From assembly GCA_020438665.1 (NCBI GenBank), contig JAGQUE010000060.1, forward strand, positions 1-20,758: a stretch of DNA of 20,758 bases, written 5' to 3'. The notes below the pieces were generated by a model that did no database searches, was not told the origin of the DNA, and saw only the letters and a list, made by a program, of their open reading frames with translations. A program made the position numbers and the translations under genes. Each line of letters opens with the position of its first letter. The first letter of the stretch is position 1. This document shows positions 11,980 through 16,289 of the stretch, piece after piece. This DNA is from Nocardioidaceae bacterium. Lineage in GTDB: Bacteria; Actinomycetota; Actinomycetes; Propionibacteriales; Nocardioidaceae.

Positions 11980-12540
11980 ATGCCTTATCCCGACGTTCCC
12001 CGGCCCGATGTGCCGGCACCGATCGCGGTCGTGCGTGACTTTGTGAACACCACCGACCTCGAGACCGGCGGGGACGACCTGTCGACCCCTGCGGAGCTGG
12101 TCCGGTGGCTCGCTGGCGCGGGTCTGGTCACCGGGGCACCCGGCGCCACGGGGCACGACCTCGCCCTCGCGCGCCAGCTGCGGGCGGGGCTGCGCGCGGC
12201 CCTGGAGCACAACCACGACCACGCGAGCGCGGAGCTCCCCGAGCTCGAGGCGTCGCTCGCCTCGCTCGACATCGCGCTCACGTGGAGCGCCAGCGGAGCG
12301 ATGCTCAAACCCGCCAGCGGCGGCGTCCGGGGGGCCCTGGCCGCCATCGGCATCGCGGCCCACCAGGCCGCGGCCGACGGGCTGTGGCACCGCCTGAAGA
12401 TCTGCTCGTCCGACGAGTGCGCCTGGGCCTACTTCGACCACTCCAAGAACCGCTCCCGACAATGGTGCGAGTACGGCTGCGGCAACCGCATCAAGACCCG
12501 CGCCTATCGAGCCCGTCAGAGGTCGGCAGCGCCGGCCTGA
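11980..12540 (+). CDS. CGNR zinc-finger / ABATE-domain transcriptional regulator
   Basis: A 186-residue protein of the ABATE (DUF1470)-CGNR family, putative stress-related DNA-binding regulators. The N-terminal part (RDFVNTTDLETGGDDLSTPAELVRWL) is the ABATE domain. The C-terminal zinc finger has Cys142 and Cys147 in CSSDEC, the linker YFDHSKNRSRQWC, then Cys163 and Cys167 in CEYGCGNR, followed by a basic RIKTRAYRARQR tail. ATG 11980 has a strong GGAGGT three nt upstream. The upstream divergent region carries paired repeats and is a likely autoregulatory site. The 3' end overlaps the convergent ADP-ribosylglycohydrolase gene by 25 nt. Confidence 0.88.
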   Translation: MPYPDVPRPDVPAPIAVVRDFVNTTDLETGGDDLSTPAELVRWLAGAGLVTGAPGATGHDLALARQLRAGLRAALEHNHDHASAELPELEASLASLDIALTWSASGAMLKPASGGVRGALAAIGIAAHQAAADGLWHRLKICSSDECAWAYFDHSKNRSRQWCEYGCGNRIKTRAYRARQRSAAPA

Positions 12541-13526
12541 CCCGCCGAAAGGCAGGCGCGGCCGAGCGCGACCAGGTCGGGGCCGGTGAGTCCGGGCCAG
12601 CCGTGCACGCGGTCGGCCCACGCCGCCGGGATCGACGCAGCACCGTGGAGCGCGCCGAGCAGCCCGCCCGCGATGGCGGCCACCGTGTCGGTGTCGTCAC
12701 CGATGCGTACGGCGTGGCAGAGCCCCTCCTCCAGCGGAGCCTCGGAGCGAAGCCCCGCGGCGACGGCGACGACCGCCGCCTGGAGCGCCGTGACCGTCCA
12801 GCCATTGGGCGAGAACCGGCGCCCGGGGACGCCGCTGGACGTGTCGGTCAGGGCGTCGTCGAGCAGGGCGCGCCACCAGTCGCGCCGCGCCCCTGGGACG
12901 AGGTCGAGACCCGCAGTCGCGACGAACTGCCGCTCGGTGAGCGCGACCCTGACGGCCTCGGTCCACAGGATGCAGGAGTCGCCGGCGACGGGATCGGCGT
13001 GCGTCAGCGAGGCGACGACCCGGGCCGCGACCGCCGTCGCCTCCCGGTCGTCGGGCCGCCACAGCGCGACGGGGGTGGTGCGCATCAGGGCGCCGTTGCC
13101 GGCGGCGTGGGGGTGGTCGACGGCGAAGACACGGGCCTCCTGTGCCAGCAGACCGCCCATAGCCTGGCCACCGGCAGCCTCGGTGCCCGCCGCTCGACGG
13201 CGCACTGCCCCGAGGACCGCGCGGGTCTGGTTGCCGATGTCGGCGGGGCCGCCGTCGAACCACGACAGGAAGCCGGCAGCGACCAGGTCGCACCCGGACG
13301 CGGCGGTGAGGTCGGCCCCGGCGGCCACCGCCCGGGCCACCGCCACCGTCATGGCGGTGTCGTCGCTCCACTCGCCGGGCGCGAAGTCGCCCAGCCCGCC
13401 GCCGATCATCTCGGGCCGCTGGCCTGCCTCGAGCGGGGTCGCGAACTCATAGGGCACCCCCAGGGCATCGCCGACGGCCGTGCCGAGCAGCGTGCCGGCG
13501 GCGCGGTCCATCAGCGCGTCAGTCAT
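12516..13526 (-). CDS. ADP-ribosylglycohydrolase (DraG/ARH family)
   Basis: A Mg-dependent hydrolase of the DraG/ARH fold that removes ADP-ribose from proteins or small substrates; 336 residues. Key motifs are GTAVGDALGVPYEF (15-28), the metal-binding WSDDTAMT (53-60), HAAGNGALMRTTP, and the C-terminal RIGDDTDTVAAIAGG, whose Asp277, Asp278 and Asp280 complete the bimetal site, so it should be active. The target is unknown; no ADP-ribosyltransferase is visible nearby. ATG 13526 lies 6 nt after a TAGCCT box on the same strand with no Shine-Dalgarno, so a leaderless start is likely. It overlaps the CGNR gene tail-to-tail by 25 nt. Confidence 0.92.
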   Translation of the reverse strand: MTDALMDRAAGTLLGTAVGDALGVPYEFATPLEAGQRPEMIGGGLGDFAPGEWSDDTAMTVAVARAVAAGADLTAASGCDLVAAGFLSWFDGGPADIGNQTRAVLGAVRRRAAGTEAAGGQAMGGLLAQEARVFAVDHPHAAGNGALMRTTPVALWRPDDREATAVAARVVASLTHADPVAGDSCILWTEAVRVALTERQFVATAGLDLVPGARRDWWRALLDDALTDTSSGVPGRRFSPNGWTVTALQAAVVAVAAGLRSEAPLEEGLCHAVRIGDDTDTVAAIAGGLLGALHGAASIPAAWADRVHGWPGLTGPDLVALGRACLSAGQAGAADL

Positions 13527-14307: not shown

Positions 14308-14641
14308 GGTGGACCCCCCGAGTTCCCGAGATAGAAGGTGGCCTCTTTCTACCTGTGAAGACGGCCTACGCCAACGGAACCTACGCAGATGTAGGGTAAA
14401 GAAACTGCTGGTCCAAACCAGCCTTGCCACACGTGTGTCAACCTCTGAACAATCAACCAACGGTTCCGTAGCATAAGGAATGGGAGCAGCACGGCCGCGG
14501 CGGCCGGCCCGTTGCAAGAACCTGAGCCAACCTAGTGCGAGCGTGCTGTTGCCAAGCGCATTCGCCTGCTGGTAGTTACGAGGACATCACGGGAAAGTGC
14601 GCGTACGCTGACCCGGAATCGAACGGGAAGGGGGCACGCGA
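14308..14641. promoter_or_regulatory. Divergent intergenic region, NERD-like / XRE-TPR genes
   Basis: A gene-free, visibly AT-richer stretch. It holds a 6-bp inverted repeat GCTGGT-CCAA-ACCAGC (14407-14422) and a dyad at 14424-14441 listed separately. On the minus strand TTGGAC (complement of 14411-14416), 17 nt, and TACATC is a possible promoter for the NERD-like gene. On the plus strand TACGCT (14604-14609) could be a -10 box for the regulator, and GGGAAGGGGG (14625-14634) is its ribosome site. Confidence 0.45.
14424..14441. promoter_or_regulatory. 18-bp near-perfect dyad, candidate operator
   Basis: TTGCCACACGTGTGTCAA is an inverted repeat with one mismatched pair and a perfect 10-bp centre, CACACGTGTG. 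Read on the minus strand it is TGACAC-N5-TGGCAA. The same two hexamers recur with a 15-nt spacer at the promoter of the exported-peptide gene (16250-16276). It is a candidate binding site for the XRE-TPR regulator. Confidence 0.45.
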
Positions 14642-16006
14642 GTGAGCTCTCGGGATCGTGCAGAGGACGCCGCCCAGGCAGGCCTCGGACAGCGCATCCG
14701 CGACGCCCGCGTCGCACTGGGCATGACTCAGGGCGAGCTGGCCGGCAACGACTACTCCGTGGGTTACATCTCCCGGATCGAGTCCGGAGACCGACGGCCC
14801 AGCCGCGAGGCCCTGGTGGCTATCGCCGGACGCCTCACGGTGTCGGTCGACTTCCTCGAGACCGGCCAGGACGGCGATCTGCGCCGCGAGCGCACCCATG
14901 ACCTCGACGGAGCCGACATGTCCCTCGCCGCCGGCGAGGTCGACTCGGCCCTCTCGACAACCGCGGCGTTGCTCGACTCCGGCGTGCTCGCGCCGTTCCC
15001 CGACCTCGAACTGCGATCGCTCTATATCCACGCCCGCGCCCAAGAGGCTGCCGGCGACGTCCACCAGGCCATCATCGAGCTCGAGGACCTGCGCGACCGC
15101 TCGGAGGACACCCCGCTCGCGGTGCAGGTGGCGCTCGCGTTGTCGCGGTGCTACCGCGAGACCGAGGACTTCGAGCAGGCGATCAGCGCCGGTGAGCGCC
15201 AGCTCACCTCCCTGGAGACCAAGGGGCTGACCGGCACGGCCGACTATGTGCGGCTGGCCATGACGGTCGCCGGCGCGCACTACGAGGCCGGTCAGCTCGG
15301 CCTCGCCACCAGGCTGGCCCGCCGTGGCATCGCCGCGGCCGAGGCGATCAGCTCGCCGGAGGCCCAAGCAGCTGCCTATTGGAACGCCAGCATCTTCGAG
15401 CGTGACAACGGCCATCTCGAACGCGCGATCGACCTTGCTTCGCGCGCGCTCGGAGTCCTCGAGAACGGCGACAGCACCCGCAACCTGGCACGCTTGCGGA
15501 CCCAGCTCGCCCTGTTCCACCTGCGCGACCCCCACGCCGACCTGGTCGACACCCGTCGACTTCTCGAGCTGGCCGCCCAGGAGATGAAGTGGTCGTCGGC
15601 GAGCCCTGTCGACCAGGCGCGCAACGAGATGGCGTTCGCCCGACTGCTGATCCGCGAAGGTCGGGGGCGGCAGGCCCTCGAGCGCCTCGCATCCGTGCCG
15701 CCGGGCGTGTGCCACCAGGAGCCGTCACTGTCGGCGGAGCTGCGCGTGATCGAGGTGATCGCCCTGGTGGCCGACGAAGCCCCCGTCGAAGAGGCCTATC
15801 TGGGCGCGACCAACCTCCTCGACCTGCTCGGTTCCGACCGAGGCATCGGCCAGCTGTGGTTCGAGCTGGGTGAGGCCATGGCGGCCTACGGCGACAAGCC
15901 CCGGGCGGCTCAGGCCTACCGGCAGGCGTCGGTCTGCCTGGGTGCGTCGCGGGTGCTCATGCCGATCTACGACCGGACCGCCTACTCCCTGTCGACCCTG
16001 GCCTAG
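14642..16006 (+). CDS. XRE-family regulator with TPR repeats (RRNPP-like architecture)
   Basis: A 454-residue DNA-binding protein. The N-terminal XRE helix-turn-helix (about 14-76) reads GLGQRIRDARVALGMTQGEL, then YISRIESGDRRPSREALVAIAGRL. The remaining 370 residues are helical pairs of TPR type, for example LYIHARAQEAAGDVHQAIIEL, ALSRCYRETEDFEQAIS and AYWNASIFERDNGHLERAIDLA. An HTH followed by TPRs is the architecture of peptide-sensing RRNPP regulators and of some other actinobacterial regulators. GTG 14642 has GGGAAGGGGG 7 nt upstream. It is divergent from the NERD-like gene and tail-to-tail, 62 nt away, with a gene for a small exported peptide. Peptide sensing is inferred from this context. 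Confidence 0.85.
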   Translation: MSSRDRAEDAAQAGLGQRIRDARVALGMTQGELAGNDYSVGYISRIESGDRRPSREALVAIAGRLTVSVDFLETGQDGDLRRERTHDLDGADMSLAAGEVDSALSTTAALLDSGVLAPFPDLELRSLYIHARAQEAAGDVHQAIIELEDLRDRSEDTPLAVQVALALSRCYRETEDFEQAISAGERQLTSLETKGLTGTADYVRLAMTVAGAHYEAGQLGLATRLARRGIAAAEAISSPEAQAAAYWNASIFERDNGHLERAIDLASRALGVLENGDSTRNLARLRTQLALFHLRDPHADLVDTRRLLELAAQEMKWSSASPVDQARNEMAFARLLIREGRGRQALERLASVPPGVCHQEPSLSAELRVIEVIALVADEAPVEEAYLGATNLLDLLGSDRGIGQLWFELGEAMAAYGDKPRAAQAYRQASVCLGASRVLMPIYDRTAYSLSTLA

Positions 16007-16012
16007 CCCGAG

Positions 16013-16057
16013 GGGGTTTCACCCCAGCTGGTCGCCCACGGCGGCGGTCCGGCCGCC
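16013..16057. terminator. Two hairpins between the regulator and peptide genes
   Basis: GGGGT-TTC-ACCCC (16013-16025) lies 7 nt past the regulator stop. GGCGGC (16040-16045) pairs with GCCGCC (16052-16057) across 6 nt, 12 nt from the peptide stop on the other strand. Together they would insulate the convergent genes. Confidence 0.5.
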
Positions 16058-16068
16058 CATCACTGTCG

Positions 16069-16203
16069 TCAGCAGCAGAGGCTGTCGCCACCTCCACGGC
16101 TCAGCGTCGAGACGCCCTTGGCCTCAGCAGACGAGGGCACGGACACCGAGGCGAGGGTGAGGGCGACGGCGGCGGTGACGATAGCGGCGATGATCCGAGA
16201 CAT
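16069..16203 (-). CDS. Small exported peptide precursor, 44 residues, Cys-Cys C-terminus
   Basis: A small gene with every sign of being real. ATG 16203 is preceded by AAGGAG at 5 nt, and TTGACC-N16-TATGCC lies further upstream on the same strand. The product has a complete Sec signal peptide: the basic start MSR, a hydrophobic core of about 19 residues, then PSSAEA with cleavage expected after Ala28. The mature peptide would be 16 residues, KGVSTLSRGGGDSLCC. The two terminal Cys could form a disulfide, bind metal or be modified. The precursor size and export signal resemble secreted pheromone precursors. The adjacent XRE-TPR regulator makes signalling the leading hypothesis; a small antimicrobial or matrix peptide is an alternative. 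No homolog is recognised. Confidence 0.75.
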   Translation of the reverse strand: MSRIIAAIVTAAVALTLASVSVPSSAEAKGVSTLSRGGGDSLCC

Positions 16204-16261
16204 GATGGCTCCTTGGGGGGTGAGAGAGTGTTTCCCTGTCGCGTCGATGTGACACCACACG

Positions 16262-16289
16262 GGCATAAATTGGCAACTCTCTTGGTCAA
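16262..16289 (-). promoter_or_regulatory. Candidate promoter of the exported-peptide gene
   Basis: On the minus strand TTGACC (complement of 16284-16289), 16 nt, and TATGCC (complement of 16262-16267) give a leader of roughly 50 nt. TGACAC (16250-16255) and TGGCAA (16271-16276) flank the -10 box and may be operator half-sites. Confidence 0.5.

What the first reader, a model, noticed from the sequence alone, without database searches (positions are those of the whole stretch)
14642..16203. XRE-TPR regulator paired with a 44-residue exported peptide ending in Cys-Cys: candidate actinobacterial peptide-signalling system
Seen: a regulator with an N-terminal XRE HTH and about 370 residues of TPR-like helices, and 62 nt away, convergent, a short gene with ribosome site, promoter and a full Sec signal peptide giving a 16-residue mature peptide, KGVSTLSRGGGDSLCC. 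Known: RRNPP regulators of Firmicutes have this architecture, are encoded beside small exported precursors, and bind the re-imported peptide through the TPRs. Inference: this could be an analogous circuit in an actinobacterium, with a CC tail unlike most known linear pheromones.
Basis: partly seen in the sequence, partly recalled or inferred. Interest (0 to 1): 0.82.

Follow-up and report, generated by a model that had tools for sequence, protein, structure and literature searches.

The report
Likely actinobacterial peptide pheromone and receptor
An actinobacterium carries, side by side, a gene for a tiny exported peptide ending in two cysteines and a gene for a protein built like known peptide-pheromone receptors; the same pair recurs in many related species, which points to a chemical language not yet described for this group of bacteria.

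Summary
The XRE-TPR regulator (14642..16006, +) and the 44-codon exported peptide (16069..16203, -; 62 nt away, convergent) are a conserved pair. I read the window plus all 140 regulator places listed in 341 genomes of one family (Nocardioides carbamazepini among them): 121 of 143 evaluable regulators have a CC-type exported-peptide ORF beside them or in their cluster (first 120: 90 convergent, median gap 31 nt). In that first batch, ORFs with signal peptide, Shine-Dalgarno and terminal CC number 95 in 113 kb near regulators and 6 in 476 kb elsewhere; those 6 are duplicates or a more distant partner. In other orders the peptide is mostly divergent, still ending CC; in another class the same receptor sits beside a tiny exported peptide without CC, with an aromatic-Pro end (NWPHH, GYPWPK). 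Peptide ends track the TPR domain (partial r 0.52 given the HTH; HTH given TPR -0.05). The sequence profile matches PlcR; the fold matches PlcR, Rap and NprR, but also other TPR scaffolds. Best reading: an RRNPP-like pheromone circuit of Actinomycetota; eight targeted literature searches found none described. Binding, re-import and regulation are inferred.

The parts
14642..16006 (+). XRE-HTH + TPR regulator, 454 aa, candidate intracellular peptide receptor
   Evidence: ORF; Pfam HTH_3 and weak TPR matches; AF2 model pLDDT 91; PlcR/Rap/NprR fold matches; 362 homologs among 7990 scored candidates
14696..14857 (+). XRE-type helix-turn-helix DNA-binding domain (residues 19-72)
   Evidence: Pfam HTH_3 38.9 bits, cut-off 23
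14873..15949 (+). TPR superhelix (residues about 78-436), putative peptide-binding domain
16069..16203 (-). 44-codon precursor peptide gene, convergent to the regulator
   Evidence: ORF; convergent CC-ending partner in most homologous loci; pN/pS 0.44 in 24 sister pairs of relatives
16120..16203 (-). predicted Sec signal peptide (residues 1-28, ...SSAEA|K)
   Evidence: own n-/h-/c-region heuristic; SignalP not available
16072..16119 (-). predicted exported peptide KGVSTLSRGGGDSLCC
   Evidence: follows from the predicted AEA cleavage site
16072..16077 (-). terminal Cys-Cys codons (TGC TGC)
   Evidence: C43 C44 invariant in a 32-row peptide alignment chosen from CC peptides; 123 of 125 tabulated peptides, which were found by a CC criterion, end CC exactly, the other two CCL and CCR
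16209..16214 (-). Shine-Dalgarno AAGGAG, 5 nt before the ATG
   Evidence: read from sequence
16262..16276 (-). TTGCCAATTTATGCC, candidate operator/promoter element at -73 to -59 from the peptide ATG
   Evidence: only match in the window to TTG[CA]CA-N5-TG[AC]C; related TTGNCA-N5-TGNCA before 10 of 77 non-redundant peptide genes vs 0.00 in mononucleotide shuffles, best of 21 spacings tried; the window's own site does not fit that stricter N5 pattern, only its N16 variant

Best explanation
An RRNPP-like peptide-pheromone circuit of Actinomycetota. Shown by sequence: a small precursor with a signal peptide is encoded beside a cytosolic XRE-TPR regulator; the pair is conserved across the family, across other orders of the class and, with a different peptide end, in another class. 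Inferred: the precursor is exported by Sec, signal peptidase cuts near AxA and leaves a short peptide (heuristic sites give a median of 15 residues), whose variable last residues before CC carry the specificity; it re-enters through an Opp-type permease (possibly after reduction of the CC thiols), binds the concave face of the TPR superhelix and changes how the HTH binds DNA. The regulator most likely controls the peptide's own promoter through TTGCCA/TGACAA half-sites (autoinduction, probably activation as in PlcR or ComR; the sign is a guess) and unknown targets elsewhere.
For: Linkage: 95 SP+SD+CC ORFs in 112,712 bp within 500 nt of a regulator vs 6 in 476,450 bp elsewhere in the same loci, those 6 being tandem copies or L062's partner 1.6 kb away; 0 in 8 XRE-only control loci. 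121 of 143 evaluable regulators have a CC-type partner. In 20 whole genomes the 10 open matches that run from the start to the end of the peptide profile all lie beside a regulator; one partial match reaching the profile end has no usable start codon. Other orders: 17 of 23 loci read have a CC peptide, 2 an exported peptide ending GWNHPG/GWVYPG, 4 none. Other class and other deep relatives: 12 SP ORFs in the 400 nt divergent strip of 17 loci, all with [FWY]P near the end, vs 2 in 85 kb elsewhere, both also beside the regulator. TPR-peptide co-divergence r 0.66, partial given HTH 0.52, HTH given TPR -0.05, 90 pairs; terminal sequences follow regulator clades. Two or three tandem precursor copies in 9 first-batch loci. 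PlcR profile match E 1.4e-16; fold like PlcR, Rap, NprR. Opp substrate-binding proteins in 18 of 18 genomes tried. Motif upstream of peptides.
Against: 22 of 143 evaluable regulators have no CC partner nearby: orphan receptors or missed peptides. LGN and engineered or eukaryotic TPR scaffolds score as high as Rap/PlcR by fold, and engineered TPR proteins outscore PlcR by sequence, so similarity alone does not show pheromone binding. No complex could be modelled. Co-divergence is not corrected for shared ancestry beyond the HTH control, and the HTH is short and slow, which weakens that control. Opp proteins are common anyway (11 of 14 control genomes). The motif is present in a minority of upstream regions, and TTGACA/TTGCCA may simply be a -35 element. 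No conserved target gene found. The window's genome is not held, so its own Opp, paralogs and targets were not seen.
Confidence: 0.8

Rival explanations
1. The peptide is an effector (small secreted antimicrobial or thiol peptide) and the XRE-TPR protein is merely its local regulator, sensing something else.
For: Peptide is predicted to be exported and ends in two Cys; adjacency alone fits a regulator-target pair.
Against: Terminal residues co-diverge with the TPR domain and not, given the TPR, with the HTH; no neighbour family recurs in more than 13 of 83 loci; in another class the predicted exported part is only a few residues in some cases, such as NWPKH; several tandem receptors lie with one peptide gene.
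Confidence: 0.1
2. The short ORF is a cysteine-responsive attenuator (polycysteine uORF) rather than a product.
For: Adjacent Cys codons at the end of a short ORF, as described for Mycobacterium smegmatis (passage of PMC9031893 citing Canestrari et al.).
Against: It has a Shine-Dalgarno (not leaderless) and a conserved signal peptide; in 90 of the first 120 places it runs towards the regulator's 3' end, so the neighbour it runs into is antisense; relatives in another class lack the Cys pair. In 12 divergent loci the same-strand frames downstream of the peptide were listed only mechanically and look to me like shadow frames.
Confidence: 0.02
3. Redox or metal sensing: the peptide's CC thiols are the sensed chemistry and the regulator reads a thiol state, not cell density.
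For: CC is shared by nearly all partners found in the class (the scan itself asked for CC), and a thiol pair would change state between outside and cytosol (inference).
Against: Regulators beside non-Cys peptides belong to the same family; the conserved regulator Cys170 does not follow the presence of the CC peptide (84 of 120 with, 21 of 23 without). A mixed role is not excluded.
Confidence: 0.06

Closest known systems
PlcR-PapR of the Bacillus cereus group (RRNPP family)
   Different: Different phylum; longer receptor (454 vs 280-293 residues in the PDB chains); precursor gene convergent or divergent; peptide ends in Cys-Cys; 19% identity in the structural alignment
Rap-Phr and NprR-NprX (RRNPP family)
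   Different: Rap has no DNA-binding HTH (recalled); identity 14% and 11% in these alignments; unrelated peptide ends (recalled)
NsdA-family TPR regulators (NCBIfam NF053720)
   Same: TPR-like regulators; actinobacterial (recalled)
   Different: Window protein scores 10.8 bits against a cut-off of 75, E 0.25; no exported partner peptide known to me (recalled)

Membership tests
RRNPP quorum-sensing systems (five-criterion signature of RRNPP_Detector, PMC10075063, passages read) | propeptide of 10-100 aa | tested here: met
   44 aa
RRNPP quorum-sensing systems (five-criterion signature of RRNPP_Detector, PMC10075063, passages read) | propeptide secreted by Sec | tested here: met
   n-, h- and c-regions with AEA site by own heuristic in the window and relatives; SignalP itself not run, so met only by that weaker test
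RRNPP quorum-sensing systems (five-criterion signature of RRNPP_Detector, PMC10075063, passages read) | receptor of 250-500 aa | tested here: met
   454 aa
RRNPP quorum-sensing systems (five-criterion signature of RRNPP_Detector, PMC10075063, passages read) | receptor carries TPRs | tested here: met
   TPR Pfam matches below cut-off (TPR_MalT E 1.3e-6); AF2 TPR superhelix
RRNPP quorum-sensing systems (five-criterion signature of RRNPP_Detector, PMC10075063, passages read) | genes are direct neighbours (-60 to 400 bp) | tested here: met
   62 nt in the window; 94 of the first 120 regulators have a CC partner within 400 nt
RRNPP quorum-sensing systems (five-criterion signature of RRNPP_Detector, PMC10075063, passages read) | re-imported mature peptide binds the TPR domain and changes its activity | not testable with these tools
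   only single chains can be folded; co-divergence is indirect
RRNPP quorum-sensing systems (five-criterion signature of RRNPP_Detector, PMC10075063, passages read) | common descent with Rap/Rgg/NprR/PlcR/PrgX | tested here: inconclusive
   profile match to PlcR over HTH and first TPRs; no joint tree was built; generic TPR scaffolds score as high by fold
Cysteine-responsive polycysteine uORF attenuators | leaderless short ORF upstream of the regulated genes on the same strand | tested here: not met
   Shine-Dalgarno present and the gene is convergent to its neighbour; 90 of the first 120 relatives convergent
RiPP biosynthetic gene cluster | modification enzyme or transporter conserved beside the precursor | tested here: not met
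   no neighbour ORF family in more than 13 of 83 loci with 3 kb flanks; no RiPP-type enzyme among the window ORFs scanned with Pfam (20 ORFs). An unlinked enzyme is not excluded
NsdA family | score over the NCBIfam cut-off | tested here: not met
   10.8 bits vs 75

The most novel reading that the evidence does not exclude
Actinomycetota have their own phylum-wide family of intracellular peptide-pheromone receptors with genetically encoded short pheromones, ancestrally built on an aromatic-Pro core; one large branch evolved a C-terminal Cys-Cys tail that is oxidised outside the cell and must be reduced inside to be read, so the circuit couples population sensing to thiol redox state.
Probability: 0.2. 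Interest if true: 0.93.

Novelty: new variant of a known kind. Interest (0 to 1): 0.87.

Why it matters
Signalling in Actinomycetota is described in the passages read here as resting on enzyme-made small molecules (PMC10075063) or on butyrolactones and cyclic or modified peptides (PMC4748050). A widespread, encoded linear-peptide language would give these bacteria, many of them antibiotic producers, a second and genetically readable signalling layer. The peptides can be synthesised cheaply and added to cultures, so the hypothesis, and its possible use to switch on silent genes, can be tested directly. The short genes seem often to be missed by annotation (the protein database returned only two entries for the window's peptide), which may be why the pair was overlooked.

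Tried and rejected
Cysteine partner in the receptor: Cys170 is conserved with or without a CC peptide, so there is no sign that it pairs with the peptide thiols. Conserved target or modification gene: none beyond clade-local synteny (the ORF clusters there include antisense shadow frames). Phage carriage: the phages collection gave one unannotated record, MT836207, 41% over 70% of the query; viral contigs gave 8 loci that match only 33-65 residues in the HTH region. Regulator autoregulation: a palindrome at 14424..14441 lies before the regulator but that spacing is seen in no other of 91 non-redundant regulator upstreams. Plasmid relatives (43 records matched): of 6 places examined, Nonomuraea gerenzanensis has a divergent CC peptide, Streptomyces goshikiensis a same-strand annotated hypothetical protein ending IPLCC that my heuristic did not score as a signal peptide, and 4 gave nothing. 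The peptide search in the protein database returned only two near-identical entries. The peptide-profile whole-genome search is not exhaustive: known partners in G228 and G091 were not listed. Fold search: Rgg and PrgX were not among the 50 rows shown, which says nothing for or against them. Not read: the places for which no locus was returned, and L182-L183 (partial matches at E above 1e-30).

Literature: eight searches aimed at an actinobacterial RRNPP-type or peptide-receptor system over the held PMC library showed none; two more had other aims. Listings were capped: one search showed 20 of 38 papers, 6 of 7, 40 of 14,633 (only its first two rows contain RRNPP). Seen as passages only: PMC10075063, PMC9765709, PMC4748050, PMC13220807, PMC13118837, PMC9031893. 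Other papers were seen only in search listings. Preprints and most subscription papers were not searchable.

Full report
What is in the window. The regulator ORF is 14642..16006 (+), 454 aa. Pfam gives HTH_3 over its cut-off and several TPR models under theirs. The peptide ORF is 16069..16203 (-), 44 aa, with AAGGAG 5 nt before the ATG; the two genes are 62 nt apart, end to end. The predicted signal peptide ends SSAEA and leaves KGVSTLSRGGGDSLCC (own heuristic). The neighbours with a Pfam match are metabolic or of other kinds; none looks linked.

Relatives in one family. A protein search gave 362 regulator homologs among the 7990 candidates scored (best 120 listed); two of those listed are named as Nocardioides MAG proteins. 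The genome scan gave L001 (55%) and L002, Nocardioides carbamazepini (40%). With L001's genome as centre, 111 of 341 genomes of its family have a match at E <= 1e-60, 140 places by my count of the listing; N. carbamazepini's genome is among them. All 140 were read in the end: 30 had loci (for two of these genomes I used the longer L001 and L002), 80 regions came regions, and L129.

Linkage. The first batch (window, L001, L002, L013-L121) holds 120 regulators in 112 loci. An ORF scan for signal peptide plus CC end found a downstream partner within 1500 nt for 89 of 120. After inspecting the misses the tally is 90 convergent within 400 nt (median gap 31 nt over 87 measured), 4 divergent, 8 farther away (behind tandem regulators or a gap), 17 without, 1 at a contig edge; by locus 95 of 112. 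Three of the 94 near ones were added by eye although the signal-peptide heuristic or the exact CC end failed (L046 and L052, no heuristic signal peptide; L059, ending CCL), and L102 ends CCR. The rest (26 regulators, read by eye from the output, slightly looser criteria): 19 with a CC-type partner (counting L214, L218 and L224, whose ORFs are longer or end CCG/CCRR, and three tandem regulators of L222 with one peptide), 5 without, 2 at contig edges. Together 146 regulators (140 places, the window, 5 further tandem copies), of which 121 of 143 evaluable have a partner, the window included.

Chance. In the first batch, ORFs with signal peptide, SD and terminal CC number 95 in 112,712 bp within 500 nt of a regulator and 6 in 476,450 bp elsewhere; five of the 6 are tandem copies and one is L062's partner 1.6 kb away. 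Eight loci with only an XRE match gave none. A peptide profile run over 20 whole genomes gave 10 open matches from within 5 positions of its start to its end, all beside a regulator, and many partial ones; the only other open match reaching the profile's end has no usable start codon. The search missed known partners in G228 and G091, so it cannot prove that solo peptides are absent.

Protein-level conservation. In 24 independent sister pairs (72-98% DNA identity) pN/pS is 0.44, and 0.55 over the last 12 residues. The residue before CC is W in 77 of 123 tabulated peptides. Nine first-batch loci have two or three tandem precursor copies.

Beyond the family. In a class-level draw 60 of 394 genomes match at E <= 1e-30; loci were returned for the best 30 places. 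Of the 23 new loci read, 17 have a CC peptide (3 convergent, 14 divergent), 2 have a divergent exported peptide ending GWNHPG or GWVYPG, 4 none; L129 of this set is also in the family set. Several of these peptides end WPGMCC or WPTMCC. Named records: Nonomuraea gerenzanensis (divergent, DAGCC) and Streptomyces goshikiensis (same strand downstream, annotated hypothetical protein, IPLCC, not scored as a signal peptide by my heuristic), 2 of 6 plasmid places examined. In a phylum-level draw 12 of 396 genomes match at E <= 1e-40, and in one small class (27 genomes held, all one order) 12 of 27 at E <= 1e-30. Among 17 loci read there and in other deep relatives, 12 have an exported peptide of 28-33 aa in the 400 nt divergent strip, all with an aromatic-Pro near the end (SFPWGGT, SFPGP, GFPWPK, GYPWPK, NWPHH, NWPHVP, NWPKH, WPKH, WPRH, KWPWG; one, L163, ends PFPGCCG); two more lie beside the regulator's 3' end (L173, ending SWPHVP, placed from a partial match; L165, same strand), and these two are all that the other 85 kb holds. 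Three loci have none. So the exported partner is a property of the receptor family; the CC tail is a branch-specific code.

Co-divergence. On a FastTree of 166 regulators, peptide ends follow regulator clades (for example DRPSGCC, RNVWCC, RTGWCC, WPGMCC) and 12 of 14 rows with non-Cys peptides fall in one separate group (midpoint root, long branches flagged, peptide labels given per locus, so a partnerless regulator in a locus with a peptide carries that label). Over 90 pairs, TPR distance correlates with peptide-end distance (r 0.66), also given the HTH (0.52), while HTH given TPR is -0.05. The permutations do not correct for shared ancestry.

Structure and promoter. The AF2 model has mean pLDDT 91. 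PlcR is the best natural sequence match in the PDB (one engineered TPR protein scores above it); by fold LGN, RapJ, NprR and PlcR all match. Upstream of peptide genes TTGCCA occurs in 28 of 77 non-redundant regions (of 108) against 3.4 in dinucleotide shuffles, and TTGNCA-N5-TGNCA in 10 of 77 against 0.00 in mononucleotide shuffles, the best of 21 spacings tried. The window has TTGCCA-N5-TGCC at -73 from the ATG and fits the N16 variant (8 of 77). These may be operators or part of the promoter. Opp-type binding proteins are present in 18 of 18 relatives tried.

Mechanism. Shown: a conserved peptide gene with a signal peptide, variable near its end, locked to a receptor-like regulator. Inferred: export, cleavage, re-import, TPR binding, autoinduction. 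Most likely role of CC: part of the recognised end; a redox or metal role is possible and untested.

Known or new. All five computable criteria of the RRNPP signature are met, secretion only by my heuristic (for the criteria), but binding and descent are not shown, so I call it RRNPP-like, not a member. The RRNPP_Detector survey used genomes of Firmicutes and viruses (passages), the other RRNPPA survey does not contain the string Actino, and eight targeted searches of the held library showed no actinobacterial case.

Noticed in passing
window 14424..14441: Near-perfect palindrome TTGCCACACGTGTGTCAA between the NERD-domain gene and the regulator, 218 nt before the regulator start.
   Followed up: partly
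L227 659..790 (-) (G001:C357): In the genome of the window's nearest genome relative, a 43-aa signal-peptide ORF with SD ends GGFSWPSTPRP: an aromatic-Pro exported peptide without CC, on a contig where no regulator of the family was found. Possible second pheromone type.
   Followed up: partly
L120 and L121: Four tandem regulators of the family lie with one exported CC peptide gene at the end of the array.
   Followed up: partly
L023, L024, L032, L039, L073, L074, L075, L089, L110: Two or three copies of the peptide gene behind one regulator, some identical.
   Followed up: partly
L224: Peptide-like ORF ending NVPCCRR on the same strand upstream of the regulator; unusual arrangement and end.
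   Followed up: no
L142 and L147: Divergent exported peptides ending GWNHPG and GWVYPG instead of CC, beside regulators that group near the Nonomuraea one.
   Followed up: partly
L150 3538..3753 (NZ_CP108058): Annotated hypothetical protein WP_008741297.1 next to a Streptomyces plasmid relative of the regulator ends IPLCC.
   Followed up: no
MT836207.1 107-1069: A record deposited as Bacteriophage sp. from human faeces encodes part of a relative of the regulator (41%); possibly a bacterial contig.
   Followed up: no
window 12519..13526 (-): ADP-ribosylglycohydrolase gene (PF03747) beyond the NERD-domain gene.
   Followed up: no
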